Both the position numbers and the translations under genes were made by a program. A DNA stretch of 64,000 nt from Acidobacteriota bacterium. GTDB lineage: Bacteria; Acidobacteriota; Thermoanaerobaculia; UBA5066; Gp7-AA6. The notes under the pieces are model-generated. The model was given only the letters and a program-made list of their open reading frames with translations, searched no databases and had not been told where the DNA came from. Shown piece after piece: positions 25,704-40,218 of the stretch. Each line of letters starts with the position of its first letter. Positions within the stretch are counted from its first letter, which is position 1. The stretch is taken from contig DAHUXD010000049.1 of the NCBI GenBank assembly GCA_027307335.1, positions 62,001 through 126,000 on the forward strand, given 5' to 3'.

Positions 25704-26884
25704 GGCGCCGCGCTCCGCCGGACGGAGAGCGAGAGAACGGCGAGGTAGACGAAGCACGCGATCGGCACCGCGAACGCGGCGCGCACCCCCGCCCGATCGG
25801 CCACGAGCCCCATGACGGCCGGCAGCACGGCGCCTCCGAAGATCGCCATGCACATCAGGCCGGAGAGCGGGCCGCTCGACGCCGGCCGCCGTTCGATCGT
25901 CAGCGCGAAGACGAGGGGCCAGATGTTCGCGAACCCCAGGCCGCAGAGGATGACGCCCGCGAGCGCCGCCTCGCGGCCCCCGGCGAGGAGGAGCGAGAGG
26001 CCCCAGAGCCCCACGAGCGCGCTGACGCGGAAGAAGCGCCGCGCGTCGAGGAAATCGAGGACGACCGAGCCGAGGAGCCGCCCCGCGGAGAGCGCGATGA
26101 AGAAGAGGCCGGGTCCCCACTGCGTGGCGGAGCCGAGGTCCATGCCGAAGCGCCGCGAGAGAAACGTGGCGAGCCAGGAGTTGAGGCCGACCTCCGCGCC
26201 GACGTAGAGGAAGATGCCCGCGACCGCCAGGGCGACGGCGGGGTCCCTCAGGAGGGCGAAGCTCGAGGCGACGCTCGCCGGCCGGTCTTCGGCCGAGCGC
26301 GCCGCGGCCGGAAGGAAAAAGGCCGCGAGCAGCGCCGCGAACGTCACCGCGGCGGAGAGCGGGAAGATCCGGTACCACGCCAGACCCAGAGCGACGAGAA
26401 GCGTCGTGACGTAGGGTCCCGAGATCGAGCCGAGGCTCTTCAGGAACTGGGCGAAGGTCAGGTTGCGCGCGTAGCGGCCGGGCGCGCTCACGTCCCGCAT
26501 CATCGGGTTGCCCGCGACCTGGAGGGCGGCCATTCCGAGGCCGATGAGAAAGATCGCGACGAGGAGCCGGCCGTAGCTCGAGAGCGCCAGGCTCGCGACG
26601 ATCTGGCCGGCGAGCACGACGCCGAGCGCGGCGAGGAGCAAGAACCGCTTGCCGCGCCGGTCCGCGACCACGCCCGCGGGCACGGAGAAGAGCGCGAACG
26701 CGACGAAGCCGAAGAACGGGAGCAGGCCCGCCTCGGCGCCCGAGAGACGGAACTCCGTCTTCGCGAAGCCGACGAGCGTGCCGACCGCGTCGACGAAGCC
26801 CATCACGAAGAAGGCGAGGAAGATCGGCAGCGCGCCGAGCGGCGAGCGCTCGCGCGGCGCGGCCGCCGCGGCGGCGCTCGTCAC
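25700..26884 (-). CDS. FucP-like MFS sugar:proton symporter
   Basis: A 394-residue major facilitator with 12 predicted membrane segments. Landmarks are FVDAVGTLVGFAKTEFRLSG in helix 1, FGFVAFALFSVPAGVVADRR with the MFS A-motif, AGNPMMRDVSAPGRYARNLT and FLKSLGSISGPYV. The NP and Q/N-containing helix 4 region is typical of the FucP/GluP branch, whose members import fucose, glucose, galactose or mannose. The GTG at 26884 overlaps the stop of the GH47 gene (GTGA); a GTG one codon earlier is equally possible. Its position between an exo-mannosidase and a sugar kinase suggests mannose import. Confidence 0.87.
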   Translation of the reverse strand: MTSAAAAAAPRERSPLGALPIFLAFFVMGFVDAVGTLVGFAKTEFRLSGAEAGLLPFFGFVAFALFSVPAGVVADRRGKRFLLLAALGVVLAGQIVASLALSSYGRLLVAIFLIGLGMAALQVAGNPMMRDVSAPGRYARNLTFAQFLKSLGSISGPYVTTLLVALGLAWYRIFPLSAAVTFAALLAAFFLPAAARSAEDRPASVASSFALLRDPAVALAVAGIFLYVGAEVGLNSWLATFLSRRFGMDLGSATQWGPGLFFIALSAGRLLGSVVLDFLDARRFFRVSALVGLWGLSLLLAGGREAALAGVILCGLGFANIWPLVFALTIERRPASSGPLSGLMCMAIFGGAVLPAVMGLVADRAGVRAAFAVPIACFVYLAVLSLSVRRSAAP

Positions 26885-28239
26885 CACGTCCGGCGCATCG
26901 GGTGCGCCTCCGTGTTGAAGACCGTCTTCTCGAAGTCCCAGGGCGCCTCGGAGAAGAGCAGGTAGAAGTACTTGAGCGTTTCCGCGAGGAAGTAGCTCGG
27001 CATCAGGTCTCCCTGCTCGCCGCTGTCGACGCTCTTCAGCACCGTGAATCCCTCCGCGGTCCGGCAGCGCGCTCGGATCGCGTCGAAGAACGTCCGGCCC
27101 ATCTCGAGGTACCTCGAGTCCTTCGTGAAGCGGTGCAGATAGAAGGCGGACTCGACGATCTCCGGCCGCAGCGGATAGCCGGGATCGACGATTCGCATAC
27201 GCTGATAGTCGAGGAGCTCGGGCTCGATGCCGCGGAGCTTCCACATCGCGAGACACGAATCCTGAAGGCGGCGCGCATGCGCGACGTCGCCGCCGAGCAC
27301 GAGGACGCCCGGCAGGAACGCATGCAGCGCGCCGAACTCCGACGCGGTGCGCTGGCCCGTGTTCATGTCCACCTGCCCGTACCAGAGGCCCGAAGGCTCC
27401 TCGTCGGCGAGATGGGCGTTCAGCGCGCGCAGACTCTCCGCCCACATCCGCTCGCAGTCGGCGTCGCCGAAGAGCCGCGCGGCCTTCAGCAGGTACTCGT
27501 AATACGAGTCGATGCCGCCGCCGACGTGGCTCGCGGGACTCAGCCACTTCCCGGTCTCGACGTCGATCTCCTCGCCGACGAGACCGATCGGCGAGCGCCG
27601 CTCGTAGAGCGCGACGAGCGCCTTCTTCGCCTTCTCGTAGAACACCGGCTTGCCCGTCAGCTTCGACAGCGTGCCGAACTCGAGGAGCAGCGTCCCGATC
27701 TCCGCCGGGTTCGACCGCGCGCCCGACGTCTTCCCCGTCTTCAGGTTGACGAACATGTACGGCATCCCGGTCGGCGACGCGAACGCCGGCAGGAGGCGCG
27801 TCCCGAGGTCGTCGGCGAGGGCGAGGAGGCGCGGATCGCCCGTCGCCTGATGGGCCGAGAGGAGGCCGCCGAGGAGACGGATCGTGATCTCGAAGTTCTT
27901 GACCGAGACGTCCCGGTCGAACGAGAGCCTCTCGAGGATCAGCCCCTTCGCGCGGTTCGCCTCGTCCTTCAAGCCCACGAGGAGCAACGTGTCGAGCGCG
28001 TCCACGGGCGTCATCAGGAGCGGCTCGCCGTACCAGTCGCGGGCCGTCTTGCTGAGCGGCTTCAGCTCGTCGTGCCCCCACGCGTACCGTTCGTACCCCG
28101 CCCACGCGTGCCGCAGCTCCTCGCGCACCTTGACGGCGAGCGCGGCGCGATCGACCGGAGGCGTCTCCGGCACCGAGCGCCGGCCGGCGGCGCCGATCGC
28201 GGCGAGCACGAGCAGGGCGGCTCCCTTCGAAACCTTCAT
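26881..28239 (-). CDS. GH47 family alpha-1,2-mannosidase, exported
   Basis: A 452-residue glycoside hydrolase of family 47. Family motifs appear in order: HAWAGYERYAWGHDEL (45-59), VDALDTLLLVGL, FEITIRLLGGLLSAH, PAEIGTLLLEFGTL, GGGIDSYYEYLLKA, LRPEIVESAFYLHR, SYFLAETLKYFYLLFSE and FNTEAHP near the C-terminus, whose Thr443 is the expected calcium ligand. GH47 enzymes remove alpha-1,2-linked mannose with inversion. A signal peptide (GAALLVLAAIGAAG) sends it to the periplasm or beyond. It is the first gene of a three-gene operon with overlapping stop/start codons leading to a FucP-like importer and a ROK kinase. GH47 is far commoner in eukaryotes than in bacteria. Confidence 0.9.
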   Translation of the reverse strand: MKVSKGAALLVLAAIGAAGRRSVPETPPVDRAALAVKVREELRHAWAGYERYAWGHDELKPLSKTARDWYGEPLLMTPVDALDTLLLVGLKDEANRAKGLILERLSFDRDVSVKNFEITIRLLGGLLSAHQATGDPRLLALADDLGTRLLPAFASPTGMPYMFVNLKTGKTSGARSNPAEIGTLLLEFGTLSKLTGKPVFYEKAKKALVALYERRSPIGLVGEEIDVETGKWLSPASHVGGGIDSYYEYLLKAARLFGDADCERMWAESLRALNAHLADEEPSGLWYGQVDMNTGQRTASEFGALHAFLPGVLVLGGDVAHARRLQDSCLAMWKLRGIEPELLDYQRMRIVDPGYPLRPEIVESAFYLHRFTKDSRYLEMGRTFFDAIRARCRTAEGFTVLKSVDSGEQGDLMPSYFLAETLKYFYLLFSEAPWDFEKTVFNTEAHPMRRTW

Positions 28240-28344: not shown

Positions 28345-29061
28345 CTACCAGAACATCGAGTGGGCGAGGATGCCGAGCGCCGCTAGCCCGCGGAGAATCA
28401 GGAGAACGCCGACGGCCGCGATCAGCAGGCCCGCCCAGCGCCAGCCGCGGACGCGCCGCAGCGCCGCCGGAGAGATGGAGGAAAGCGCGAAGATCGCGGG
28501 GACCGTGCCCAGGCCGAAGACGAGCATGACGACGGCGCCGGAGCCCGCCGATCCGGCCACGGAGGCGCGCGCCGCCGCGCCGTAGACGAGCGCGCAGGGA
28601 AATGTGCCCTGGAGCGCACCGAGCAGGATTGGGGAGAGGAACCGTGGCGCGGCCAGCGCCTCCCGAGCCCCGCCGCGGATGAGCACGTCGATGCCGGCGC
28701 GATGGAGAACGACGGCCGGGTCCGGAAGGATGCCGGCGAGGGCCAGCCCGAACGCGATCGCGACCGCTCCCGCAACCACCGCAACAAGGCCGCCGAGCCG
28801 GGCTCCCGCTCCGGCCGCGAGCGCGACCTGCCCGAACCCGCCGACGAACGCACCGATCGCCGCATAGACCGCCAGCCGTCCGAGGTTGAAGAGAATCCGA
28901 GTGGCGACGCTCGGTACAGGCCTCGCGGCGGCCGGCACGAGGCGGGCGGCGCACATCGCCACGTACGGGCCGCACATCCCGACGCAGTGAGCGCTGCCGA
29001 GAAACGAGGCGAAGAAAAGGAGGATCAGATCGCCCGACGCGGGGAGAGCGTGATGGTGCAC
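28345..29061 (-). CDS. SafE/TauE-like copper-oxidase biogenesis membrane protein
   Basis: A 238-residue protein with six membrane segments and the signature GSAHCVGMCGPYVAMC (Cys26, Cys30, Cys37) of the COG2836/DsbD-like family, often called sulfite exporter TauE/SafE. Members commonly sit in cbb3 oxidase clusters and are thought to act in copper delivery or cofactor assembly rather than sulfite export. A second conserved segment, LGALQGTFPCALVYGA, holds another Cys. It is the last gene of the nine-gene oxidase operon, six bases after ccoS. About 105 bases then separate it from the mannose operon. Confidence 0.85.
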   Translation of the reverse strand: MHHHALPASGDLILLFFASFLGSAHCVGMCGPYVAMCAARLVPAAARPVPSVATRILFNLGRLAVYAAIGAFVGGFGQVALAAGAGARLGGLVAVVAGAVAIAFGLALAGILPDPAVVLHRAGIDVLIRGGAREALAAPRFLSPILLGALQGTFPCALVYGAAARASVAGSAGSGAVVMLVFGLGTVPAIFALSSISPAALRRVRGWRWAGLLIAAVGVLLILRGLAALGILAHSMFW

Positions 29062-29067
29062 GCCCGA

Positions 29068-29280
29068 TTACGGACGCTCGAGCGGCTCGGGGTCAGAAGC
29101 CGGGTGCGAGGATTCGGTGCCGAGGGGAGCCGCAGACGGATCCGCCGCCGGCCAGATCTGGTACTTGATGTCCTCGACGTCGCGAAACTGTCCGGTCCGG
29201 ATGGCCCAGAGGAAGATGCACCACGCGGCGAAGGAGACGAGGAGGGCGACGAAGAACAGATAGAAGGTGATGTCGATCAT
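29068..29280 (-). CDS. ccoS: CcoS, cbb3 oxidase assembly protein
   Basis: A 70-residue single-span protein: one N-terminal membrane helix (FYLFFVALLVSFAAWCIFLW), then the CcoS landmark AIRTGQFRDVEDIKYQIW. CcoS proteins help insert copper and haem into CcoN. The tail after the landmark is a longer Ser/Pro-rich region than in most CcoS proteins. It is 16 bases after the preceding operon gene and six before the SafE-like gene. Confidence 0.85.
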   Translation of the reverse strand: MIDITFYLFFVALLVSFAAWCIFLWAIRTGQFRDVEDIKYQIWPAADPSAAPLGTESSHPASDPEPLERP

Positions 29281-29296
29281 CGAACGGTGCCTCCGG

Positions 29297-29788
29297 TCAG
29301 ATGCCCTCCTGAACCGCGCCGAGGCCCGGAACCTTCAGATGGTAGACGACGCCCATGATCCTGTAGAGCACGGCGAACGCGCACGCCGTCGCCATGGGTT
29401 GGACGACGATCGCCGAAAGGAAACGCAGGAAGAGCCGGTCGCGAGACGGCCCCTCGGGGAGGTCGCCGTAACCGGCCGTGAACCGGACCAGGAGCGACGC
29501 GAGCAGAAGGTTCAGGACAGCGTACGCGATCCACAGGGCGACCGCCGCGACGCGGCCGCCTCGCTCGACGGGAACTCCGAGGGCGAGAACGATCCGGGCT
29601 CCCAGCCAGGCGAGAAGCACGGCCGCATAGCCAGCGAGGGCTCGATTGAGTCCAGCGGCCGTCTCGGAGTGCCGACCGGATCGGCCTCCCAGGCGCAACC
29701 GCCGCGCGAGCCACACGACCGGCACGAGCAGAGCCGGCACGGCGTACGCCGTGAACGTCAGCTCGACCATCCGGAAGAATCCCGTCAT
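29297..29788 (-). CDS. Unknown four-helix membrane protein of the cbb3 operon
   Basis: A 163-residue inner-membrane protein with about four helices: near residues 7-27 (ELTFTAYAVPALLVPVVWLA), 50-70, 82-105 (AVALWIAYAVLNLLLASLLV) and 120-145. No haem- or copper-binding His/Cys pattern stands out. I do not recognise a family. The ATG at 29788 is chosen because it lies ten bases after the fused CcoO gene; the open frame before it belongs to that gene's region. Its fixed place between the oxidase subunits and ccoS suggests an accessory or assembly role. Confidence 0.7.
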   Translation of the reverse strand: MTGFFRMVELTFTAYAVPALLVPVVWLARRLRLGGRSGRHSETAAGLNRALAGYAAVLLAWLGARIVLALGVPVERGGRVAAVALWIAYAVLNLLLASLLVRFTAGYGDLPEGPSRDRLFLRFLSAIVVQPMATACAFAVLYRIMGVVYHLKVPGLGAVQEGI

Positions 29789-29798
29789 GGCCCTCCCG

Positions 29799-31520
29799 CT
29801 ACCGCGAGACGCGGAACCCGCCGGTCGAAGGCGCCTGCGTTTCCGCCGGACTCCGCGCGAGTGAGAGCGCAAAGTACACGAGCGCCCAGCGGCGATGGTC
29901 CGCGAACGCGGTCCGATCCGCCTCGCTCATCTTTCCGATCGCCTCACCCGTCGGCAGCGTCGCAATGTAGTCGCCGACCTCCTTGACCTCGGCGTCGGAG
30001 AAGACGGGTTTGCCGTTGTAGAGCTGCTGCCAGGGCTTCAGGTCCGGGAACGCCTCCTTCGGGTAGAGGATCGTGTCGTAGAAGGACGGCATGGGCGTGC
30101 CGTTCAATCCCGTGTTGAACGTCCGGTAGACGTCGGCCGGCGAGTCGCCGAACTTGAAGTTGCCGGTCGTGAAGTCGAACGGCCGTATCGGGACCTCGAA
30201 GTCGTCGACCAGCGCGCTCGCCGACGGCCCGTCTCCCTTCCCCCCGATGCCGTGGCAGGTCCAGCACTGGAGGACGCGATACACCATCTTCCCCTCCCGG
30301 CGCAGCTCGGCGGGTGCGGCCTGGGCGGAGGGGAACAGCGGGACCGGTATCGCGATCGGAGGAGGGACTTCTTCCTTCTGAAAGCGATCGGTGAAGCTCT
30401 TCACGTAGTCCACGAGGTCCCAGCGATCCTGCTCGGTCAACATGTGGCCATCCGCCGGATTGCCCCAGGCCGGCATGATCTGTCCCTTGCGAATGCCTCG
30501 AGTGATCGTTCGGAAGATGTCCTCGTCGCGCGGGAGCGCCCCCGAGGGTGTCGTCCGGCTCTTGAAGACGGCCAGCGTGAAGTTCCGCGGCTGCGGATCG
30601 AGGAAGTGGTACGCGTCGCTGAAGTTGGTGGAGCTCTTGTCGTCCTTCGTCAGGCGGCCGTTGCCGAACTTGCCGTGGCAGCCGGCGCACTTGTTCTCGA
30701 AGACTTCCTTGCCCCGGGCCAGGCGCAGCGCCAGGGGCTCGGTCGGCCTCGGACGCTGATTGGTCGGCCAGGGCTCCCAGACCCGCCAGTCGCCGATCGC
30801 GGTGCCGATTCTCTGGAGGTACGCCTCGACCGCCTGCATCTCCCGGGTCGGGACCGGCCCGTAGTCGTGCATGTCGACGATGCCGTCGCCGACCGTCCCG
30901 TCGGGGTTGACGGGCCAGACGTCCATCTCCTTCCACTCCGGCGGTAGCTCATCGGGGGTGATGACGCCGTCGCCGTTCTTGTCGAGCTCGCTCTTCGTGA
31001 CCCGGCCGTCGTGGTTCTTGTCGTACTTTTCGATGAACGCCTTCACCGCCCGGTCCCGTGCCGGATCGTCCGCGTACAGCCAGGTGAAGGCCGGCATCAT
31101 CGACTGCGGCTCGGTCGCGCGGGGGTTCCAGTGGTGCGCGTAGTGCCACTCGTTGGATCGGCGATTGCCCTCCCGCGAGAGCTCCGGACCGATGCGCCGC
31201 GTCCCGAACATCTGGGGAAGGTCGTCGCTGATCTCGCCCGCCTGCGTCACCGGCCCCCACTTGTCGGTGTCCCGATTCACCGGCCGGATGTACTGGGAGT
31301 GGCAGTACCAGCAGCCCTCGCGGATGTAGATCCGGCGCCCCTCGGCCTCGAGCTCGTCGCGCTTCGGCGTCGAAGCCGTCTTGCCGTCGATCGTCTTGAG
31401 GGTCGTCGGCCGCGTCACGTCCTTCTCGAGCAACGGAAGGATCCCCTGGCTCGTCATCGCGAGCGCGTAGAAACCGACGGCCGCGACCAGGATGATCGGC
31501 TCGATCCGCTCTCTCTTCAT
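29799..31520 (-). CDS. ccoO: CcoO cytochrome c subunit fused to EF-hand loops and a dihaem cytochrome c
   Basis: A 573-residue protein where CcoO alone is about 200. Residues 1-165 match CcoO: an N-terminal anchor (PIILVAAVGFYALAMTSQG), haem site C70-WYC-H74 in EGCWYCHSQYIRP, and RRIGPELSREG. Two calcium-loop-like segments then lie side by side: D167-x-N-x-D-G to E178 and D180-x-N-x-D-G to E191. CcoO-type sequence resumes (DYGPVPTREMQAVEAYLQRIG, to about 242). A dihaem cytochrome c follows, with C278-AGC-H282 and C419-WTC-H423 and probable Met ligands in QIMPAWG and TPMPSF. This last part is a paralogue of the separate dihaem protein at 33142. It is expected in the periplasm, anchored by its N-terminus, passing electrons to CcoN. 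Confidence 0.9.
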   Translation of the reverse strand: MKRERIEPIILVAAVGFYALAMTSQGILPLLEKDVTRPTTLKTIDGKTASTPKRDELEAEGRRIYIREGCWYCHSQYIRPVNRDTDKWGPVTQAGEISDDLPQMFGTRRIGPELSREGNRRSNEWHYAHHWNPRATEPQSMMPAFTWLYADDPARDRAVKAFIEKYDKNHDGRVTKSELDKNGDGVITPDELPPEWKEMDVWPVNPDGTVGDGIVDMHDYGPVPTREMQAVEAYLQRIGTAIGDWRVWEPWPTNQRPRPTEPLALRLARGKEVFENKCAGCHGKFGNGRLTKDDKSSTNFSDAYHFLDPQPRNFTLAVFKSRTTPSGALPRDEDIFRTITRGIRKGQIMPAWGNPADGHMLTEQDRWDLVDYVKSFTDRFQKEEVPPPIAIPVPLFPSAQAAPAELRREGKMVYRVLQCWTCHGIGGKGDGPSASALVDDFEVPIRPFDFTTGNFKFGDSPADVYRTFNTGLNGTPMPSFYDTILYPKEAFPDLKPWQQLYNGKPVFSDAEVKEVGDYIATLPTGEAIGKMSEADRTAFADHRRWALVYFALSLARSPAETQAPSTGGFRVSR

Positions 31521-31545
31521 CGCGCTCTCCGATCCCGTTCCAGCC

Positions 31546-32955
31546 TCAGGTCCACTGCGGCTCCGATGCGAGCGGCGCCCCGGCCGGCGCCTCGATGCGC
31601 TTGCCGTGCATGACCGTCATGTAGAAGTTCCACATCCCGAGCAGGGCGCCGATGTCCATCGTCACGCCGGCGAGCGTGCGGGCGAACCAGTACGGCTTCA
31701 TCGCCACCATCGAATCGACGAAGTCCGCGCCGACGTCGAGCATCGTCCCCTGCAGGAGTCCCTGAAGGGTCAGCACCGAGGCCATCACCGAGAACCCCGC
31801 CACGGTCAGCCAGTAGTGCCACTGGGCCAGGCTCTTCGAGTAGAGCTCGTGGCCGGAGACTCTCGGAATCACGTAATACATCCCGGCGGTGACCCAGAGA
31901 ATGAATGTGCCGAAGACCGTCAGGTGGGAATGGGCGATCACGAAGTCCGTGAAGTGCGTCAGCCGCTGCATGCCGCGCAGCGCCTCGGTGGACCCCTGGA
32001 AGCAGCCCAGCAGGTAAAAGAGCGCGCCGATGATGAGGAACTTGGCGGTGTAGGACTCCTGGAAGCGCTTCCAGTTCCCGACGAAGGTGCCGTAGAAGTT
32101 CTGGATCACGGTCCAGACCGGAATGATCAGCATCATCGACGCGACGATCGCGATCGTCTGCGTCCAGTAGGGAATGGGACTGTAGATGTAGTGGTGCGTG
32201 CCCACGAATGGATAGAAGAACGCGAGCGACCAGAAGCCCACGAGCGATAGCTTGTGGCTGTACAGCGGCCGTTTCGCCGAGAGCGGAAGGAAATAGTAGA
32301 TGACCGCGAGGCCCGCCGGAGTGATCCAAAGCCCGACGACGTAATGGATGTAGAGGCCGTGCATCGCGGCGTTGTTCACCCCGGGCATCGAGTACGGCAG
32401 GATGAAGTGGCCGAACGCGTAGTTGAAGACGGTCCAGACGTACGAGGCGGTCAGGTACCAGAGCGTCACGTAGATCCGCGGCTCCTTGCGGCGGACGACC
32501 GTCACGAGAACCTGGATCGTGATCATGATGAGGGCGATCTCGACGACGATGTTCGACCAGAGCGGGAACTCGCCGGCCTCGATGCCCAGGTTCTGGCCCA
32601 GAGGTAGCGAGATCAGCGAGGCCGTCAGCCCGATGTTCCAGATCCAGAGGAGGGCCCGGCTCCAGTTCTCCTTGTACATGCGGATGCCGCACAGCCGGGG
32701 CACCATGTAGTAGGTCAGGCCGACGATCGCCGTCGAGAAGGCCCCGAAGATGACGCCCATCACGTGGACGGGCCGCAGCCGGCCCCAGGTCAGCCAGGAG
32801 ACGTTTCCCAGGAAGTCGTAGTAGTTGAACTTGATAGAGAGGATCACGCCGATCGTCGGGGCGAAGACGAGCCAGAAGGCGGCAGAGAGCAGGAAACGCA
32901 GGACGACTTCCCGGTCGACGAGGTCGTCCCTGTCGGCGGCGGCGACCGAGCTCAT
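31546..32955 (-). CDS. ccoN: CcoN, cbb3-type cytochrome c oxidase subunit I
   Basis: A 469-residue subunit with 12 membrane segments, the usual length. The expected ligands are present: His64 (RPVHVMGVIFG) and His344 or His342 (AHSHLTVFG) for haem b, a second His of that pair for haem b3, and CuB ligands His204 (YIHYVVGLW), His254 and His255 (GTHHYIYSPIP). Tyr248 in FFYPFVG corresponds to the cross-linked Tyr typical of cbb3 enzymes. It reduces oxygen to water and pumps protons with high oxygen affinity. It lies four bases after the small anchor gene and 25 before the CcoO fusion. Confidence 0.95.
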   Translation of the reverse strand: MSSVAAADRDDLVDREVVLRFLLSAAFWLVFAPTIGVILSIKFNYYDFLGNVSWLTWGRLRPVHVMGVIFGAFSTAIVGLTYYMVPRLCGIRMYKENWSRALLWIWNIGLTASLISLPLGQNLGIEAGEFPLWSNIVVEIALIMITIQVLVTVVRRKEPRIYVTLWYLTASYVWTVFNYAFGHFILPYSMPGVNNAAMHGLYIHYVVGLWITPAGLAVIYYFLPLSAKRPLYSHKLSLVGFWSLAFFYPFVGTHHYIYSPIPYWTQTIAIVASMMLIIPVWTVIQNFYGTFVGNWKRFQESYTAKFLIIGALFYLLGCFQGSTEALRGMQRLTHFTDFVIAHSHLTVFGTFILWVTAGMYYVIPRVSGHELYSKSLAQWHYWLTVAGFSVMASVLTLQGLLQGTMLDVGADFVDSMVAMKPYWFARTLAGVTMDIGALLGMWNFYMTVMHGKRIEAPAGAPLASEPQWT

Positions 32956-32959
32956 GACG

Positions 32960-33124
32960 TCACCCCTTGTCCGTCCAGAAGCGGACCAGGTAATACACCA
33001 TCCAAATCAGCATCACGACGTACACGAACCCGAGCCACTTCGGGATCTTGCCGTGGCGCTCCTCGATCCCCGAAAACTCGTAGTGGTTGATCTCCTGCGA
33101 GTCCTCTTTGTGTTCGTCGGGCAC
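32960..33124 (-). CDS. Stand-alone CcoP N-terminal anchor / CcoQ-like protein, 54 aa
   Basis: A small gene with a good ribosome binding site (GGAGGCGAC before GTG at 33124). The product has a hydrophilic start, then HYEFSGIEERHGKIPKWLGF, which resembles the pre-helix region of CcoP, and one membrane helix (VYVVMLIWMVYYLVRF) ending in TDKG. In standard cbb3 oxidases this segment is the N-terminus of CcoP. Here it is separate from the dihaem cytochrome, whose stop is 17 bases upstream. It probably sits in the CcoN complex and may dock the soluble cytochrome. Confidence 0.78.
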   Translation of the reverse strand: MPDEHKEDSQEINHYEFSGIEERHGKIPKWLGFVYVVMLIWMVYYLVRFWTDKG

Positions 33125-33141
33125 CGTCGCCTCCGATCGGC

Positions 33142-33906
33142 CTACTTGGCCGCTGCCGGGCCGTAGTTCTTCGGATAGAGCGCCGACAGGCTCTGGATGT
33201 AGTGCACGAGATCCCAGGCCTCCTCCGGGGAGATCGAATCGGTGAAGGACGGCATCGGCGTGCCGTTCAAGCCCGTGATGAAGACGCGGTAGATGTCCGA
33301 ACCCGTGTCGCCGCACTTGATGTGGCCCTGCGTCAGGTCGTAGGGCACGATGGGGTTGCCCCAGTCGTCCTTGAGCTCGTGCGCGGAGGGACCGTCGCCG
33401 AGCGCGTCCTGGCCGTGACACTGGGCGCAGTTTGACTTTTCGTAGACCGCTCGACCCCGTTTGACCGAGGCGTCCGAGTAGGGCGGCTCGGCGGGAATCA
33501 CGATCGACGGCTGGGGCTTGTCGGTTTTCCAGCGCGCCGAGAAGGTCTTGATGTAGGCGATCACGTCCCGCCGGTTGTGCTCGCCGATCGCGTACCAGGT
33601 CGGCATGAAGGTTCCGTAGATGCCGTCGCGAATCGTCTTGTCGAGGTCCGCGTCCGTCGGCAGCGAACCCGACGGCGTCGACCGCCACTTGAACGTGCCC
33701 TGGCGGTAGTCCCTCGGCTTGGTCGTGATCCACTCCGCGAACTCGCCGGCGCCGTTGCCGAGCTCGCCGTGGCACGAAAGGCAGTAGCGCTCGTAGACGA
33801 CCTTGCCCTTGACCGGGTCGCCCCCGGAGCCGGGCCCCTGCGCTCTAGCCGGCGCCGCCAGCGCGAGCGCGACGAAGGCCGATGCGACGATGGAAAGCCT
33901 CTTCAT
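33142..33906 (-). CDS. Dihaem cytochrome c (CcoP-like, soluble)
   Basis: A 254-residue protein with a cleavable signal peptide (VASAFVALALAAPARAQ) and two haem sites, C42-LSC-H46 and C160-AQC-H164. Probable sixth ligands lie in GTFMPTWY and TPMPSF. It corresponds to the periplasmic part of CcoP but has no membrane anchor of its own; the anchor-like segment is the next gene. STPSGSLPTDADLDKTIRDG and TGLNGTPMPSF closely match the C-terminal half of the fused CcoO protein, showing a duplication. It likely receives electrons from periplasmic donors and hands them to the oxidase. Confidence 0.88.
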   Translation of the reverse strand: MKRLSIVASAFVALALAAPARAQGPGSGGDPVKGKVVYERYCLSCHGELGNGAGEFAEWITTKPRDYRQGTFKWRSTPSGSLPTDADLDKTIRDGIYGTFMPTWYAIGEHNRRDVIAYIKTFSARWKTDKPQPSIVIPAEPPYSDASVKRGRAVYEKSNCAQCHGQDALGDGPSAHELKDDWGNPIVPYDLTQGHIKCGDTGSDIYRVFITGLNGTPMPSFTDSISPEEAWDLVHYIQSLSALYPKNYGPAAAK

Positions 33907-33918
33907 GGCGCCCTCCCT

Positions 33919-35220
33919 TCAGTAGGCGAAGTCGATGCCGACCAGATACTGGTTGGTTCGCGTATTGAGACCGTTCGCGCCCATGCCCATCGTCTGCCAG
34001 GTGCTGTATTCGGCGACGAGTGCGTATTCCGAACGATTGCTGAACTGGAACGTGTGCCGCCAGCCGAACGTGATCGCGTTCTGGTCGTTGAGATCCTGGG
34101 GGAGCGTCGGGTCGCCCTGCTGGGAGTTCTTGCAGAGGTCGTACCGGAAGAAGACGAGGTTCTTCAGAGTGATCGTCCAGCCGAGCTCAGCGAAACCGCC
34201 GTTGAAGGTTCCGTTCTGCGTGGCGTTCGGAATCAGCGCCTTGTCGTCCTCGCCGTGGGCGAAGACGACGATGAGGTGAAGGGGGGTCGCCGGGGGCCCG
34301 AACCAGACCTGGGCCTCGCCGCCGATCTTCTCCGACGGGTAGAGGTTCCCGCCGGTGCCGGGGATCGGAGTGCCGCCGCTCGTGAACGAAGTGGTGGGCC
34401 ACGTCGTGTACGAGCCGAAGACGCCGAGCTTGAGCGCCGACACGGCTCCCGAGCCGAAGGTCCATTCGTGCGTCGCGTGCCCGTAGAGGCCGGGCGTGCT
34501 CCAGAAGTTCTCGGTGCCAGGCGAATTCTGAACGTTGAAGACCGAGACCGCGACGCGATTCAGGCTTCCCCGGTCGTGGCCCATGTATTCCACGCCCCAC
34601 TGGTTCTCGCCCATGTCGTAGTTCGAAGCGGAGCCGTTGGCGTGGAAGCTGTAGATGAGGTACGGCGTACCAGTCAGGTTCCAGGGCCGATGGGCCGACA
34701 CCGGGAGATCGACCTCGTGGCGGCCGAGCTTGAGGTTCGCCCACGACGTGCCGAACAGGTTGTCGAAGCGGACCCACGCCGACTCCAGGAAGACGGCGCC
34801 GTCCGGCGCGAACCCGGTCGGAACGACGAGGAAGGAGACGTTCTGGAAGAGCACGCCACCCATGAGGAGGTCCATTCCGACCTGCCCCACGCCTCCCGAT
34901 CCGAGATTCTTCGTGCCCTGGTCGGTCGGCTGATTGGTCACCTGCGTATAGGTGTACTGCGGGGTGATCCGGACGGACACGGGCCAGTATCCGGGCGTCT
35001 CGAAGATCGTGTCGTCCTTGCCCATCAGGAGCTGATAGCCGTTGTCCCGGAACGCTCGCCCGAAGTCGTTCAGCTTCGGCCACGACTCGTGGCACGCCGT
35101 GCACCGCAGCCCGTATTTTCGCGCGAACGCCGGAAAGGCTCCGGCCCTCGGCGGCGCGAGCAACGCGATGGTGGTCAGAACACCGCAGGCGGTGGTGACG
35201 AGCTTGGCTGTCCGTGTCAT
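33919..35220 (-). CDS. Outer-membrane beta-barrel with N-terminal haem c motif
   Basis: A 433-residue exported protein. After a signal peptide (residues 1-28) comes one CxxCH site, C40-TAC-H44, in a segment CTACHESWPKLNDFGRAFRD. The rest looks like a transmembrane beta-barrel: alternating polar and hydrophobic strands such as PVSVRITPQYTYTQVTN, LKLGRHEVDLPVS, ALKLGVFGSYTTW and EYALVAEYSTWQT, ending YLVGIDFAY with the aromatic C-terminus of outer-membrane proteins. No second haem site is present. It lies 12 bases before the dihaem cytochrome gene and 39 after the cupredoxin-like gene. It may bring a haem to an outer-membrane pore. Direct electron export is unproven. Confidence 0.8.
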   Translation of the reverse strand: MTRTAKLVTTACGVLTTIALLAPPRAGAFPAFARKYGLRCTACHESWPKLNDFGRAFRDNGYQLLMGKDDTIFETPGYWPVSVRITPQYTYTQVTNQPTDQGTKNLGSGGVGQVGMDLLMGGVLFQNVSFLVVPTGFAPDGAVFLESAWVRFDNLFGTSWANLKLGRHEVDLPVSAHRPWNLTGTPYLIYSFHANGSASNYDMGENQWGVEYMGHDRGSLNRVAVSVFNVQNSPGTENFWSTPGLYGHATHEWTFGSGAVSALKLGVFGSYTTWPTTSFTSGGTPIPGTGGNLYPSEKIGGEAQVWFGPPATPLHLIVVFAHGEDDKALIPNATQNGTFNGGFAELGWTITLKNLVFFRYDLCKNSQQGDPTLPQDLNDQNAITFGWRHTFQFSNRSEYALVAEYSTWQTMGMGANGLNTRTNQYLVGIDFAY

Positions 35221-35259
35221 CGCGGAAACCTCCTCCTCGGTCGGGGAGCTCTCTCCTCG

Positions 35260-35985
35260 CTACTTCTTGGGCGTGAAGCTGAAATCCACGGTGACCGGCT
35301 TACCCGCCGCCACCGTCGCCGACGCGTCTTTCTGGCCCATCACCTCGTGCCACGCCACGACCGTGTAGGTGCCCGGCGGAACGTCCTTGATCTCGAAGTG
35401 CCCATCGGCGTCCGTCGTCGCGTAGTAGGGGTGATCGAACTCCCAGATCCAGGCGCGCATCCACTCGTGGGCATCACACTTGACGCGAATGAGCTCCGGC
35501 GTGGCAGGGAGCGGCTTGGTCACCGAGAAACCCTTGAACGGGAGGGCGATGTTGTAAATCGTGGCGTTCGTATCGTTGTTCTGCGGATGGGTGTTGTGCA
35601 GGATCGGATCGTCCGAGGCGATCTTGATCTGCTGCCCGGTGCTCGAACCCTGGACACGAGGATCGAACATGCAATGGGTGTTCAGGAGGGTGATCGTCGC
35701 GGTCGGATTCGCCTTTCCTTTTTCGATCCCCTTGAGAAAGACCTCGACGTTCTTGAGCCCCCCGTCCTTCCCCACGACGTAGAGCGGGTTGTCGATCGAG
35801 TTGCCGCAATAGTCCTGGTTCTTCGTCGTCTTGATGGGCGGCACCGTCGGTGCCTGCCCCACGAGCTTCACGACGCCCTGGACCGTGCCGCCGTTCGTCA
35901 CCGTGATCACCTCGTAGGCCGACCCGACTGCGGACAGCACGCTCAGCAGAGCGGCGGACAAAGCGGTGGACAGAACCTTGCGCAC
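35260..35985 (-). CDS. Exported cupredoxin/carboxypeptidase-regulatory-like protein, first gene of the oxidase operon
   Basis: The GTG at 35985 follows a near-perfect AAGGAGGTCGC ribosome binding site. The 241-residue product has a signal peptide (TALSAALLSVLSAVGSA). The first half contains GGTVQGVVKLVGQAPTVPPI with NQDYCGNS, and NTHCMFDPRVQGSSTGQQI. The second half has VKCDAHEWMRAWIWEF and a carboxypeptidase-regulatory fold (ATTDADGHFEIKDVPPGTYT). Cys and His in HCMFDPR, LHNTHP and KCDAHEWM are candidate metal ligands, as in related plastocyanin-like proteins. It leads the cbb3 operon and may carry copper or electrons in the periplasm. The distance to the divergent LysR gene is 267 bases. 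Confidence 0.75.
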   Translation of the reverse strand: MRKVLSTALSAALLSVLSAVGSAYEVITVTNGGTVQGVVKLVGQAPTVPPIKTTKNQDYCGNSIDNPLYVVGKDGGLKNVEVFLKGIEKGKANPTATITLLNTHCMFDPRVQGSSTGQQIKIASDDPILHNTHPQNNDTNATIYNIALPFKGFSVTKPLPATPELIRVKCDAHEWMRAWIWEFDHPYYATTDADGHFEIKDVPPGTYTVVAWHEVMGQKDASATVAAGKPVTVDFSFTPKK

Positions 35986-36204
35986 GCGACCTCCTTGTGA
36001 ATGGGGATTTGGAACAGAGATATCGACATCGACGGGAAGCGCCGGGGGGATCAAAGTGTGGAGATCGTAGAAATGCGGCGCTCCCGCCGTCTAATACCGG
36101 TTTCGTTTCTCCGTGAGAGGCAATCGCTCTCAACAGAGAGGGATAAACACGAGATAAACGACAAAGGGCCGTCGGCTATCACGGAAAACCCCGAAGCCAG
36201 TGTC

Positions 36205-36221
36205 CTTAAGATACGCTTAAG
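36205..36221 (+). promoter_or_regulatory. CTTAAG-N5-CTTAAG dyad/direct repeat (motif E)
   Basis: CTTAAG at 36205 and 36216 form both an inverted repeat and an 11-base direct repeat. T36207 and A36219 give the T-N11-A pattern of LysR-type sites. It lies 31 bases before the LysR start codon in the region divergent from the cbb3 operon, so autoregulation by the LysR protein is one reading and an OmpR-type regulator another. Confidence 0.5.
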
Positions 36222-36252
36222 AAAGCGGGCCTTCGCGGGGGGAGGAAGACAC

Positions 36253-37170
36253 GTGGAATTGAGACACCTGAGATACTTTGTCGCGGTTGCGGGCGAGCTT
36301 CACTTCGGTCGCGCCGCCGCAAAGCTTCATATCTCGCAGCCTCCGCTTTCTCAACAGATCCAGGACCTCGAGCGTGAGCTCGGCGTCGAGCTCCTTCACC
36401 GCACGCGGCATTTCGTCGCGCTGACGGAGGCCGGCCGCGCCTTTCTCGAGGAGGCCCGTCGGATCCTCGAGGACACCGATCACGCGGTCGCAATGGCCCG
36501 CAAAGCCGGGCGCGGCGAACTCGGGCACCTGTCGATCGGTTTCGGCCACGCCTCGGCCGCCGGTGTGCTGGGGCGGATCCTGAGGGCCTTCCGCGTGCAG
36601 CACCCGAAGGTGACGATCGATCTCCAGACTCTGCACTCCGTGGAGCAGGTCGAGGCGCTCGTCAGCCGGCGAATCGACGTCGCCTTCCCGATTCTGCCCG
36701 CGTCCCATCGCGACCTGGCCGCGGAGGCCATCGCGACGGAGCCCCTGGTCGCCGCTCTCCCGGCCGATCACCCTCGGGCGTCGAGGCGGCGCGTCGCGCT
36801 CGCCGAGCTGCGCTCGGAACCGTTCATCCGCTTGTCACCGGCCGCGGCCCCGACCTTCCACGACCTGGTTCAGAAGGCGTGCGCCGATATGGGTTTCGCT
36901 CCGAAAGTGGCTCACGAGGCCGGGCACATCCTCACCGTCCTCGGGCTGGTGGGCTCCGGGCTCGGGGTCGCCATCGTGCCGGGATGGCTTCGCACCGGGC
37001 CCTGCGACGGAGTCGTGTTTCGCTCTCTCTCGGGCGCGCCGACGATCAAGATCGGCGTGGCCTATCGCCGCCACGAACCCTCGCCGCTGCTGCCGGCCTT
37101 CCTCGACGTCGTCCGGTCCGTCGCTCGGCCACGCTCGGTCCGTCCGCTCCGCGCTTCCGCCGGAGCCTGA
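36253..37170 (+). CDS. LysR-family transcriptional regulator
   Basis: A 305-residue regulator. Residues 1-60 are the winged helix-turn-helix (ELRHLRYFVAVAGELHFGRA, KLHISQPPLSQQIQDLEREL). The rest is the substrate-binding-like effector domain (LSIGFGHASAAGVLGRILRA, GSGLGVAIVPGWL). The GTG at 36253 has GGGGGGAGGAAG upstream and places the helix-turn-helix at the expected position; the frame is open upstream but without a start signal. It is divergent from the nine-gene cbb3 operon, with the CTTAAG dyad between, and is therefore a candidate regulator of the oxidase. The effector is unknown. Confidence 0.9.
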   Translation: MELRHLRYFVAVAGELHFGRAAAKLHISQPPLSQQIQDLERELGVELLHRTRHFVALTEAGRAFLEEARRILEDTDHAVAMARKAGRGELGHLSIGFGHASAAGVLGRILRAFRVQHPKVTIDLQTLHSVEQVEALVSRRIDVAFPILPASHRDLAAEAIATEPLVAALPADHPRASRRRVALAELRSEPFIRLSPAAAPTFHDLVQKACADMGFAPKVAHEAGHILTVLGLVGSGLGVAIVPGWLRTGPCDGVVFRSLSGAPTIKIGVAYRRHEPSPLLPAFLDVVRSVARPRSVRPLRASAGA

Positions 37171-37435: not shown

Positions 37436-39502
37436 TCATGGCCGCTGCAGTCGCAGCGAGTTGCCGACGACGAAGAGGCTCGAGACGACCATGGCCCCGG
37501 CGGCAACGACGGGCCGAAGCAGTCCGAGCGCCGCGGCCAGCACCCCCAGGGAGTTGTAGCCGAACGCCCAGAAGAGATTCTGCCGCACGACGCGCATCGT
37601 CCTTCGCGCGAGCACGACGAGTCTCGGAATCTCACGAAGGTCCTCCCGCAGAATCACCGCGTCGGCGCTCTGCTTCGCCAGACCCGATGACGGTCCGAAA
37701 GCGATTCCGGCCGCCGAGGCCGCGAGGGCCGGCGCGTCGTTGACGCCGTCGCCGATCATCATGGCGGCGTCGCCGCTGTGAGTCTTCAGCGCTTCGAGTT
37801 TCTCCCGCGGGTCCAGTTCTCCGAAGGCTTCGTCGATCGCCGCCTCGTCGGCCGCGCGTTCGACGGCCGCGCCCCGGTCGCCCGACAGGAGGACCGTCGC
37901 GACGCCCAGGGCCTGGAGTTGCTCCACGGCCGCCCTCGCCTCGGGCCGCACCGGATCCCCGATCTGGAAGAGGGCAACGACTCGGCCGTCGACCGCCATG
38001 ACGATCCCCTTCTCCGGCGCCAGCTCCGTGTCGCGCTCGACCCCCGAGACTCCCTCCCGGGACAGCAGGGAACGATTTCCGAGCAGGACCCGGCGGCGCT
38101 CGACGGTGCCCGAGGCGCCTCCGCCGGCGACCGCGCGAACGTCTCGAGCCTCGGCGCGCGGGACTCCGCGGCTCGCCGCGAACGCCGCGATGGCCCGAGC
38201 GAAGGGGTGATCGACCTCGGCTTCGACGGCCGCGGCGTACCGGAGGACGTCCTCCTCCGCGATCGTCGCATCGGGATCGACCCGGAGGGAACGGACGACG
38301 GGCCTTCCCGTCGTGATCGTGCCGGTCTTGTCGAAGGCGGCCCGTCGAGCGCCGGCGACGGCCTCGAGCACGGCTCCGCTGCGGAGGAGCGTTCCCCGGC
38401 GCGCCGCCATCGAGATCGCCATCGTCGTCGCCATGGGCGTCGCGATGCCGAGCGCGCAGGGACAGGCCACGACGAGAACCGCGAGAGCGGCGAGGCCCCC
38501 TCGAGCCCAGTCCCCCGCGCCGATGCCCCACGCGAGAGCGCTCACCATTGCGATCGCCGCGACGGCGGGAACGAATCGCGCCACGAAGCGGTCGGCCGTG
38601 ATCTCGATCGGCGCGCGGCGGTTCCGGGCCTCCCTCGTCCAGCGCTCCACGCGGCACGCCAGAGTCTCCGACTCGCCGGCGGCCTCGACCAGCAGCGCGC
38701 CATCGATCGCGACCGACCCCGCGAACACGGCGTCCCCCGGCACGACGAGCCGGGGCGACGCCTCTCCCGTGAGCGCCGGTTCGGAGACGTCCGAATTGCC
38801 CTCGAGGACGCGGCCGTCGACCGGAATCTCCTCTCCCACGCGGACGGCGACGCGGTCGCCTCGGCGCACGCGCTGAGGCTCGACGCTTCGCTCGCGCCCC
38901 GCATCGAGCACCCGCGCCGGCGCCCGCGCGGCCTGGATCGTGGGAGCGAGCACCGCCGTCGCCTTCTCCCGGGCGCGCGCGTCGAGGTACTGCCCCAGCA
39001 CGACGAAGACGAGCACCATGGTCCCGGAGTCGTAGTAGAGGTGGCGGCCGCCTCGGATGGTCTCGACCGCCGAAGCGCCGATGGCGGCGAGGGCGCCGAG
39101 CGCGATCAGGGTCTCGAGAACGATCTGGCCGTTGCGCGCCGATCGATACGCCGCCCGGAGCATGGGCACCCCGAGCAGCAGGTACACGGCGGCCGCCATG
39201 GCGAGCATCAGCCAGGACGACGTGCGGAGCGCGTCGCTGCCGAGCGCGTCGAGGGACCCGAAGTAGAGGAGGCTCTGGAACATCATGATGTTCCCCGAGA
39301 GCACCGCGGCCAGGCCGAGCTTCGCCAGGAACCAGCCGGCGCGTCCCGACTCGCCCGCGGCGCCGACGAGCCGGAACACGGTGAGGCAGCCATAGCAGCA
39401 GAAGCCGAGCGTCCGGCCCTCCATCGTTTCCTGGAACGCCCGCGCGGGAAGAGGCAGACGGCAATGGGCGCACTCCTCCCTCGCCTGTGGCTCTTCCGGC
39501 AT
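37436..39502 (-). CDS. ccoI: Copper-type P1B ATPase (FixI/CcoI/CopA2-like)
   Basis: A 688-residue heavy-metal ATPase. The N-terminus carries the Cys-rich metal-binding domain seen in FixI-like pumps: Cys11 and Cys14 (CAHC), then Cys35, Cys36 and Cys39 in FCCYGC. No classical GMxCxxC HMA domain is visible. The membrane metal site is C347-P-C349; the phosphorylated residue is Asp391 (DKTGTIT); HP and GDGVNDAPAL follow. Pumps of this class export copper for insertion into cbb3 oxidase. The gene lies next to the oxidase locus, separated by the LysR gene and a small membrane protein. The ATG at 39502 is preferred because the Cys-rich domain then starts at residue 11. Confidence 0.88.
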   Translation of the reverse strand: MPEEPQAREECAHCRLPLPARAFQETMEGRTLGFCCYGCLTVFRLVGAAGESGRAGWFLAKLGLAAVLSGNIMMFQSLLYFGSLDALGSDALRTSSWLMLAMAAAVYLLLGVPMLRAAYRSARNGQIVLETLIALGALAAIGASAVETIRGGRHLYYDSGTMVLVFVVLGQYLDARAREKATAVLAPTIQAARAPARVLDAGRERSVEPQRVRRGDRVAVRVGEEIPVDGRVLEGNSDVSEPALTGEASPRLVVPGDAVFAGSVAIDGALLVEAAGESETLACRVERWTREARNRRAPIEITADRFVARFVPAVAAIAMVSALAWGIGAGDWARGGLAALAVLVVACPCALGIATPMATTMAISMAARRGTLLRSGAVLEAVAGARRAAFDKTGTITTGRPVVRSLRVDPDATIAEEDVLRYAAAVEAEVDHPFARAIAAFAASRGVPRAEARDVRAVAGGGASGTVERRRVLLGNRSLLSREGVSGVERDTELAPEKGIVMAVDGRVVALFQIGDPVRPEARAAVEQLQALGVATVLLSGDRGAAVERAADEAAIDEAFGELDPREKLEALKTHSGDAAMMIGDGVNDAPALAASAAGIAFGPSSGLAKQSADAVILREDLREIPRLVVLARRTMRVVRQNLFWAFGYNSLGVLAAALGLLRPVVAAGAMVVSSLFVVGNSLRLQRP

Positions 39503-39561
39503 CGTCGCGGCTCCGCCCGGCGGAGCTTCGCCGCGGGCGAGGGCCCCGCGCGCGGCCGCCC

Positions 39562-40218
39562 TCAGGGTCCCCCGCACCGGTAGGACTCCCCGACGACTTC
39601 CCCGTCCCGGTTGCTCGCCACGACGTAGGCCACGTCGCCGCCCGTCCGCGCGACCGCCTCCTGAAAGAGAGAGACGGCTTGGTATTCCGTGAAGCTCGCG
39701 AGAAAGCGGCAGCCTCGGACCGCTTCGGAATTGTTCGTCACGCGCGGGGCGGCGGCGCTCGCCGGGGCCGGTGCGCCGGTGGACCCGCTCGAGCCCGGCC
39801 GAACGGGGGACGGCGCGGGCGTGGCCGCCTCCATGCTCGCGGAAGCGGGGCCAGAAGCGGGCGTCGGGGCTCCCGCGGCTTTCGCCGGTTCCGGGGACTT
39901 CGCCGCCTCGGCAGGTTTCGGCTCATCGGGAATCGCCTTGCAGGAATAGAGCTGGTTTCCTCCGGGAGTCTCGAGGATCACCCACTCGATTCCCGCCTTC
40001 GGGATGACGAGAGACTCCGTCTGGGCCTCCGCGCTGCCGTACCTCTCTTCGGGCCTGAGATTCATGATGAACGCGCATCCCTGCACCGTCTCCGCACTGG
40101 ACGTTCTGACGATGCTTCTCGCCAGCTCCTGCTGCTCCTCGCGCTTCTGCTTCGCGGTCACGCAGCCCCCGAAGGCCACCGGGAAAAGGATCAGGGCGAC
40201 CGTCGCTCGTCGTCTCAT
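39562..40218 (-). CDS. Lipoprotein with duplicated DUF4156-like Cys segments
   Basis: A 218-residue lipoprotein: signal VALILFPVAFGGC with lipobox Cys. The mature protein has two similar Cys-containing segments, VQGCAFIMNL with a later LYSCKA, and VRGCRFLASFTEYQAVSLF with a later SYRCGGP. They are joined by an Ala/Pro-rich linker of about 70 residues. The arrangement suggests two small disulfide-bonded domains like those of DUF4156/RcsF-type lipoproteins, though I cannot confirm the family. The ATG at 40218 gives the signal peptide the right position. It lies 59 bases upstream of the copper ATPase on the same strand. Confidence 0.72.
   Translation of the reverse strand: MRRRATVALILFPVAFGGCVTAKQKREEQQELARSIVRTSSAETVQGCAFIMNLRPEERYGSAEAQTESLVIPKAGIEWVILETPGGNQLYSCKAIPDEPKPAEAAKSPEPAKAAGAPTPASGPASASMEAATPAPSPVRPGSSGSTGAPAPASAAAPRVTNNSEAVRGCRFLASFTEYQAVSLFQEAVARTGGDVAYVVASNRDGEVVGESYRCGGP

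What the first reader, a model, noticed from the sequence alone, without database searches (positions are those of the whole stretch)
28345..35985. Nine-gene cbb3 oxidase operon with rearranged electron-entry subunits
Gene order on the minus strand is cupredoxin-like, haem barrel, dihaem cytochrome, CcoP-type anchor, CcoN, CcoO fusion, unknown membrane protein, CcoS, SafE-like, with gaps of 4-39 bases. CcoN keeps every expected ligand, but no ordinary CcoO or CcoP exists. Six c-type haem sites can be counted outside CcoN. This suggests an oxidase with an extended cytochrome wire, perhaps reaching the outer membrane.
Basis: partly seen in the sequence, partly recalled or inferred. Interest (0 to 1): 0.7.

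Follow-up and report, generated by a model that had tools for sequence, protein, structure and literature searches.

The report
Outer-membrane cytochrome-porin plus cbb3 oxidase operon
In one strand-wise run of nine genes, a soil-type bacterium seems to encode a complete electrical path from its outer surface (a haem-carrying pore protein of the kind used by iron-oxidizing bacteria) to an oxygen-consuming enzyme, and the same nine genes in the same order turn up in bacteria of another phylum.

Summary
Nine genes with 4-39 bp gaps lie at 28345-35985. Six c-haem sites lie outside CcoN, all CcoN ligands are present, and no standard ccoO or ccoP was found. Two points change the reading. (1) The 'haem barrel' meets the published Cyc2 sequence criteria (AxPxFAR[QK][TY]-x3-CxxCH-x3-PxL, 433 aa) and models as a 16-stranded porin close to OprP/OprO, the templates published for Cyc2. 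The 'cupredoxin-like' gene is a real cupredoxin with invariant Cu ligands. (2) The same nine genes in the same order occur in three Gammaproteobacteria MAG contigs (CcoN 75%, CcoO 67%), so it is not an assembly artefact. About 50 Acidobacteriota/Gemmatimonadota loci carry the same cytochrome-porin/dihaem/cupredoxin cassette followed by coxBAC, the order of the Acidithiobacillus rus (iron-oxidation) operon. Rhizobial symbiotic plasmids carry the same split/fused cbb3 core without the porin. Best reading: a rus-like electron-uptake operon whose sink is a cbb3-type oxidase with redistributed CcoO/CcoP parts. Fe(II) as donor is inferred, not shown; the genome has no detectable RuBisCO. New variant of a known kind.

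The parts
35260..35985 (-). p1: secreted cupredoxin (type-1 Cu loop C170-DA-H173-EW-M176, upstream H130/H133) with a C-terminal carboxypeptidase-regulatory-like domain; start GTG at 35985 behind AAGGAGG
   Evidence: Cu-ligand columns invariant in 26 homologues; AlphaFold pLDDT 87, Foldseek hits CuA domain, plastocyanin, amicyanin, AcoP of A. ferrooxidans; Pfam PF13620
33919..35220 (-). p2: Cyc2-type fused monohaem cytochrome-porin, 433 aa, AFPAFARKYGLRCTACHESWPKL
   Evidence: motif of PMC8406198 met; AlphaFold pLDDT 83, 16 strands; Foldseek 2o4v OprP rank 2, 4rjw OprO rank 5
33142..33906 (-). p3: secreted dihaem cytochrome c (haems at 42 and 160, distal Met candidates 101, 218)
   Evidence: PF13442 twice; PDB 6h5l E=1e-57; signal peptide by eye
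32960..33124 (-). p4: 54-aa CcoP/FixP N-terminal membrane anchor as a separate gene
   Evidence: PF14715 FixP_N above gathering score; conserved in Gammaproteobacteria and as a separate small ORF in rhizobia
31546..32955 (-). CcoN: C-type haem-copper oxidase catalytic subunit, all ligands present
   Evidence: PF00115 E=4e-75; best solved relatives all cbb3 CcoN; tree places it with Gammaproteobacteria and rhizobial plasmid CcoN, 100/99
29799..31520 (-). CcoO fusion: one TM helix, CcoO monohaem domain (haem at 70), EF-hand-like insert, two extra haem c domains (278, 419)
   Evidence: PF02433, EF-hand and cytochrome c hits; C-terminus matches PDB 6h5l, N-terminus matches solved CcoO; fused form also in Gammaproteobacteria and Sinorhizobium
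29297..29788 (-). u: about 4-TM membrane protein of unknown family, conserved in the operon
   Evidence: no Pfam/NCBIfam hit; 48% identity and same position in three Gammaproteobacteria; TM by hydropathy
29068..29280 (-). CcoS/FixS assembly protein
   Evidence: PF03597 and TIGR00847 above cut-off
28345..29061 (-). SafE/DsbD_2-type membrane protein, typical companion of cco clusters
   Evidence: PF13386; same position in Gammaproteobacteria and rhizobia
37439..39577 (-). CcoI-type P1B Cu ATPase; associated, separated from the operon by a divergent regulator
   Evidence: TIGR01525/TIGR01511 above cut-off; directly follows SafE in L146, L148 and rhizobial plasmids
36245..37170 (+). divergent LysR-type regulator next to the operon promoter; regulatory role only inferred
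   Evidence: ORF 36001-37170 with an LTTR N-terminus ([44 protein letters not shown]) read; true start by eye

Best explanation
The run encodes a rus-type extracellular electron-uptake chain that ends in a cbb3-type oxidase. Steps: (1) the Cyc2-type cytochrome-porin p2 in the outer membrane takes electrons from an external donor, most likely Fe(II) or another reduced metal or mineral [inferred from homology and fold]; (2) electrons pass in the periplasm through the cupredoxin p1 and/or the dihaem cytochrome p3 [inferred from co-operonic order and ligands]; (3) they enter the oxidase through the two extra haem domains on CcoO, which are paralogous to p3 (about 40% identical) and replace the CcoP dihaem domain, while p4 supplies only the CcoP membrane helix [domain content shown, electron route inferred]; (4) the CcoO haem reduces CcoN, which reduces O2 [ligands shown]. 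CcoS, SafE-type protein and CcoI serve assembly and copper supply.
For: p2 meets the published Cyc2 motif, length and haem criteria and its model has 16 strands with OprP/OprO among the top Foldseek hits, as published for Cyc2. p1 has invariant type-1 Cu ligands and a cupredoxin fold, with AcoP of A. ferrooxidans among the hits. Nine-gene order conserved in L145, L146, L148 from at least two metagenome projects. 52 of the loci examined carry cyc2-like/dihaem/cupredoxin followed by A-type CoxA or CoxB, usually coxB-coxA-coxC, the order given for the rus operon in PMC10654088. CcoN ligands intact. Zetaproteobacteria are proposed to use Cyc2 -> Cyc1 -> cbb3 (PMC7029218).
Against: No expression, biochemical or growth data. 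RuBisCO not found, so CBB autotrophy on Fe(II) is unlikely, though other fixation routes were not searched. Cyc2 homology rests on the short cytochrome domain plus fold; FeGenie HMMs could not be run and no verified iron oxidase was compared directly. Rhizobia use the same oxidase core without a porin, beside soxYZ and flavocytochrome c genes, so the oxidase is not tied to outer-membrane donors. About 27 cassette loci show no adjacent oxidase, some because the contig ends.
Confidence: 0.68

Rival explanations
1. An ordinary high-affinity cbb3 oxidase fed from the quinol side (alternative complex III) through p3/p1; the porin serves another purpose such as solute or copper passage and only shares the operon.
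For: The genome appears to have an ACIII-like cluster beside a CoxA gene on C7 (assigned by eye, not family-tested); rhizobia use the same oxidase core with the cupredoxin but no porin.
Against: The porin carries its own c-haem with the Cyc2-specific motif and lies between cupredoxin and dihaem genes in every orthologous operon seen complete; the same three genes travel with A-type oxidases in rus order.
Confidence: 0.17
2. The chain is an extracellular electron-uptake system but for a donor other than Fe(II): Mn(II), reduced humics, an electrode or partner cell, or a sulfur compound.
For: Motif and fold identify the protein type, not the substrate; the Phyllobacterium version sits next to soxYZ and flavocytochrome c genes; no RuBisCO found. 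Predicted His/Met haems suit a fairly positive donor (inference).
Against: Characterised members of this porin type are Fe(II) oxidases (PMC8406198); there are no sox genes within the operon.
Confidence: 0.35
3. The pathway runs outward: the cytochrome-porin dumps electrons to external Fe(III) and the oxidase is independent.
For: Cyc2 isoforms are discussed for Fe(III) reduction in acidithiobacilli (PMC10715153).
Against: The genes are locked to a terminal oxidase in the window, in Gammaproteobacteria and, as a cassette, in about 50 A-type operons.
Confidence: 0.06
4. Assembly or binning artefact joining unrelated genes.
For: CcoN groups with Gammaproteobacteria, not with the host phylum; two same-family genomes lack it.
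Against: Same nine genes in three other contigs at 48-75% identity; GC3 of the operon genes like the neighbours; the flanking gene 26884-28239 is 73% identical to one in the same family; bin contamination 0.12%.
Confidence: 0.02

Closest known systems
[quoted passage not shown]
   Same: Outer-membrane fused cytochrome-porin, dihaem cytochrome, cupredoxin and terminal oxidase in one operon; same order in the A-type Acidobacteriota relatives found here
   Different: Here the oxidase is C-type (cbb3) not aa3; the dihaem protein is 6h5l-like with no cytochrome c4 hit among solved structures; the cupredoxin has an extra C-terminal domain and stands first; no rusticyanin gene seen
Cyc2 cytochrome-porins of Mariprofundus, Gallionellaceae, Acidithiobacillus
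   Same: Signal peptide, single CXXCH, AxPxFAR[QK][TY] and PxL motifs, 16-strand OprP/OprO-like barrel, over 400 aa
   Different: KY-type motif; cluster assignment and Fe(II) oxidase activity untested
Proposed Cyc2-Cyc1-cbb3 pathway of Zetaproteobacteria
   Same: Same logic: Cyc2, periplasmic carrier, cbb3
   Different: In the passages read, the pathway components are treated as separate genes; here one operon with a remodelled CcoO/CcoP
Accessory cbb3 operon on Sinorhizobium/Phyllobacterium plasmids (e.g. NZ_CP029452.1, NZ_CP017941.1, CP140958.1)
   Same: CcoN 55% identical, CcoO with dihaem extension (36-38%), separate FixP_N helix, CcoS-like ORF, SafE, Cu ATPase, p1-type cupredoxin
   Different: No cytochrome-porin and no p3; metallophosphoesterase plus a small monohaem or hypothetical protein instead; no EF-hand-like insert; soxYZ/flavocytochrome c genes nearby in Phyllobacterium and S. 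fredii
Conventional CcoNOQP cbb3 oxidase
   Same: CcoN ligands, CcoO domain, CcoS/CcoI companions
   Different: No single-polypeptide CcoP; CcoP helix and dihaem domains redistributed; below the TIGR00780-TIGR00782 cut-offs

Membership tests
cbb3 (C-type) cytochrome c oxidase | CcoN with low-spin haem b, haem b3, CuB ligands and the C-family Tyr | tested here: met
   H64, H204, Y248, H254, H255, H342, H344 align with solved CcoN
cbb3 (C-type) cytochrome c oxidase | CcoO monohaem subunit with N-terminal TM helix | tested here: met
   PF02433 E=2e-38 and solved CcoO E=2e-29 over residues 26-160
cbb3 (C-type) cytochrome c oxidase | CcoP: TM anchor and dihaem domains in one polypeptide | tested here: not met
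   Anchor is its own 54-aa gene (PF14715), dihaem domains on CcoO and p3; no genome-wide CcoP search was made
cbb3 (C-type) cytochrome c oxidase | Score above the curated equivalog cut-offs TIGR00780/00781/00782 | tested here: not met
   261 vs 583, 121 vs 201, 43 vs 180 bits: divergent subfamily
cbb3 (C-type) cytochrome c oxidase | CcoS and CcoI assembly factors nearby | tested here: met
   TIGR00847 above cut-off; Cu P-type ATPase at 37439-39577
Cyc2 cytochrome-porin | At least 365 aa, one CXXCH, AxPxFAR[QK][TY] upstream, PxL downstream | tested here: met
   433 aa, AFPAFARKYGLRCTACHESWPKL
Cyc2 cytochrome-porin | 16-stranded OprP/OprO-like barrel behind the cytochrome domain | tested here: met
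   16 strands between residues 81 and 432; 2o4v and 4rjw among the top five hits
Cyc2 cytochrome-porin | Match to FeGenie Cyc2 HMMs / place in the Cyc2 tree | not testable with these tools
   HMMs and reference sequences not available
Cyc2 cytochrome-porin | Fe(II) oxidase activity | not testable with these tools
   needs biochemistry
rus operon | Cyc2, dihaem cytochrome, cupredoxin and terminal oxidase contiguous | tested here: met
rus operon | A-type (aa3) CoxBACD oxidase | tested here: not met
   oxidase is C-type here; met in the Acidobacteriota A-type relatives
rus operon | Cyc1 is a cytochrome c4 | tested here: not met
   p3 matches 6h5l; no c4 hit at E<=1e-3

The most novel reading that the evidence does not exclude
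A self-contained outside-donor-to-O2 respiratory module: a portable cytochrome-porin/dihaem/cupredoxin cassette that has been joined to either A-type or C-type oxidases. In the C-type version the electron-entry subunits were rebuilt (CcoP dissolved, p3-like dihaem domains grafted onto CcoO, an EF-hand-like site inserted) so that outer-membrane electrons reach cbb3 directly, bypassing the quinol/complex III route. It implies little-recognised metal-dependent respiration in soil Acidobacteriota and relatives.
Probability: 0.35. Interest if true: 0.85.

Novelty: new variant of a known kind. Interest (0 to 1): 0.66.

Why it matters
Iron-oxidation chains are usually pieced together from scattered genes; here a complete candidate path from outer membrane to O2 is written in one conserved operon, which gives marker genes and a testable wiring diagram. 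The aa3 version of the cassette in dozens of Acidobacteriota and Gemmatimonadota MAG loci, many in groups common in soils and peat, suggests rus-like electron uptake there is more widespread than the open literature searched here states. The rebuilt CcoO/CcoP shows how a C-type oxidase can change its electron-entry side, and cultured rhizobia offer an experimental handle on that core.

Tried and rejected
Searching the phylum with the CcoO fusion found no second full-length copy in 297 genomes, only dihaem hits; CcoN relatives at about 41% in the phylum have a different order (dihaem-CcoN-CcoO) and form another clade, so they are not orthologous operons. Cyc2 query against plasmids: none. Considered and dropped: NO reductase (the active-site Tyr and the best solved matches fit an oxidase), assembly artefact, and the idea that CcoO is absent. 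Paper searches for a Cyc2-cbb3-cupredoxin operon or rus-like operons in Acidobacteriota found none in the passages read or titles listed; the library is open access only. PMC11791136, on a Ca-tuned dihaem cytochrome, does not mention 6h5l and reports other PDB entries.
Full report
What was checked. Nine minus-strand ORFs lie between 35985 and 28345 with gaps of 39, 12, 17, 4, 25, 10, 16 and 6 bp. Pfam and NCBIfam identify FixP_N, COX1/CcoN, FixO, FixS/CcoS and DsbD_2 members in the expected places, two cytochrome domains in p3 and two behind the FixO domain of the 573-aa CcoO. Each of the five sites in p3 and CcoO is followed by an MP motif 58-72 residues downstream, so His/Met, high-potential haems are likely (inference). 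CcoN aligns with solved cbb3 CcoN over its length, and all ligand positions plus the Tyr six residues before the His-His pair are present.

No second cbb3 oxidase was found in the genome. The COX1-family matches are two CoxA-type genes, a divergent haem-copper oxidase on C44, this CcoN and one sub-threshold match. FixO is above cut-off only here. A full CcoP elsewhere was not searched for.

The barrel. p2 carries AFPAFARKYGLRCTACHESWPKL. Keffer et al. (PMC8406198) describe AXPXFAR[Q/K][T/Y] as unique to Cyc2, with PXL four residues after the haem motif. Their screening criteria (at least 365 aa, CXXCH, PXFAR[Q/K][T/Y]) are met. An AlphaFold model from 33 relatives (pLDDT 83, pTM 0.80) has 16 strands after the cytochrome domain, and Foldseek ranks OprP 2o4v second and OprO 4rjw fifth, the two structures that paper used for Cyc2. 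TM-scores are moderate (0.49-0.61) and generic 16-strand porins also match, so the fold supports but does not prove Cyc2 identity. The same motif occurs in many Acidobacteriota homologues.

The copper protein. p1 is assigned by sequence libraries only through its C-terminal regulatory-like domain. In 26 homologues H130, H133, C170, H173 and M176 are invariant. The model (pLDDT 87) matches CuA domains, plastocyanin and amicyanin, and AcoP from A. ferrooxidans at E=3e-4. p1 is a type-1 cupredoxin with an extra domain.

The dihaem modules. p3 and the CcoO extension are paralogous (about 40% identity) and both have PDB 6h5l as best solved relative, well ahead of CcoP. So the CcoO extension looks like a grafted p3-type domain rather than a moved CcoP domain, while the CcoP helix survives as the 54-aa p4. 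An EF-hand-like insert sits between the CcoO domain and the extension; its DxNxDG loop is kept in the Gammaproteobacteria and absent in rhizobia.

Conservation. A scan of GTDB genome contigs with p2-type sequences returned 80 named loci. Three contigs labelled Gammaproteobacteria (L145, L146, L148; a fourth, L147, ends inside p3) carry all nine genes in the same order: CcoN 75%, CcoO 66-67%, p3 65-71%, p1 52-63% (partial in L145), p2 48-52%, u 48%, CcoS 60-72%, SafE-type 53-55%. They come from at least two projects. A Cu ATPase follows directly in L146 and L148; in the window it lies at 37439-39577 beyond a divergent LysR-type gene. About 50 other loci (Acidobacteriota including Terriglobia, Sulfotelmatobacter and Acidiferrum MAGs; [quoted passage not shown] The remaining loci (about 27) show no oxidase in reach, partly because contigs end. 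In the p3 tree the four cbb3-linked sequences form one clade, 100/97.

Rhizobia. tblastn against plasmids found CcoN (55%) and the dihaem-extended CcoO (36-38% over 86%) on Sinorhizobium and Phyllobacterium plasmids, with p1-type cupredoxin, CcoS-like ORF, separate FixP_N ORF, SafE and Cu ATPase, but no porin or p3; soxYZ and flavocytochrome c genes lie nearby in Phyllobacterium. The rebuilt oxidase core therefore exists in cultured bacteria and is not restricted to the porin version.

Origin. The CcoN tree places the window with the Gammaproteobacteria (100/99), then the rhizobial plasmids (100/99), apart from the 41% Acidobacteriota group. Two same-family genomes lack it, whereas a flanking gene is 73% identical in that family. 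Operon GC3 resembles its neighbours. An old horizontal transfer fits; direction is not resolved.

Mechanism. See Best explanation. Shown: gene order, ligands, motif, predicted fold, conservation. Inferred: outer-membrane location, electron order, donor identity. McAllister et al. (PMC7029218) propose Cyc2 to Cyc1 to cbb3 in Zetaproteobacteria, which is the same logic. RuBisCO was not found, so if Fe(II) is oxidised it probably supplements heterotrophic growth, unless another fixation route exists; none was searched.

Limits. Cyc2 reference sequences and FeGenie models were not available; only single-chain structures were predicted; the literature library is open access only, so priority of the Acidobacteriota rus-like operon is not certain. 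Loci are mostly MAG contigs, and the Gammaproteobacteria label is that of the records.

Noticed in passing
G000:C28:61454-62806 (L098:7454-8806): A second Cyc2-like monohaem barrel in the same genome (AVPSYARQTGLRCSGCHYTPPELNPAGRRFKLTGY), with an octahaem protein about 4 kb away.
   Followed up: partly
L038, L039 and about 50 loci in L151-L219: rus-like operons (cytochrome-porin, dihaem, cupredoxin, coxB-coxA-coxC) in Acidobacteriota and Gemmatimonadota MAGs; no mention found in the open-access papers searched.
   Followed up: yes
30870-31060 (CcoO residues about 155-215): EF-hand-like insert in CcoO (DKNHDGRVTKSE plus PDGTVGDGIVDMHDY), conserved in the Gammaproteobacteria, absent in rhizobia; possible calcium site at the electron-entry domain.
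   Followed up: partly
L241, L242, L243: Accessory cbb3 operon on Sinorhizobium and Phyllobacterium plasmids near SCO, hemA and groEL genes, with soxYZ and flavocytochrome c genes nearby in Phyllobacterium.
   Followed up: partly
G000:C41 (L143:8455-11936): p1-type cupredoxin (39% identity) directly before coxB-coxA in the same genome, without a cytochrome-porin.
   Followed up: no
G000:C44 (L046:10092-15643): Divergent haem-copper oxidase subunit I of unresolved type beside a SafE-type gene and a second CcoI-like P-type ATPase.
   Followed up: no
L130 (G169) and L149: Cytochrome-porin/dihaem cassettes followed by RND efflux genes instead of an oxidase.
   Followed up: no
29297-29788: Four-TM protein u, no family, 48% conserved in the Gammaproteobacteria operons, not seen in rhizobia; possible oxidase subunit or assembly factor.
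   Followed up: partly
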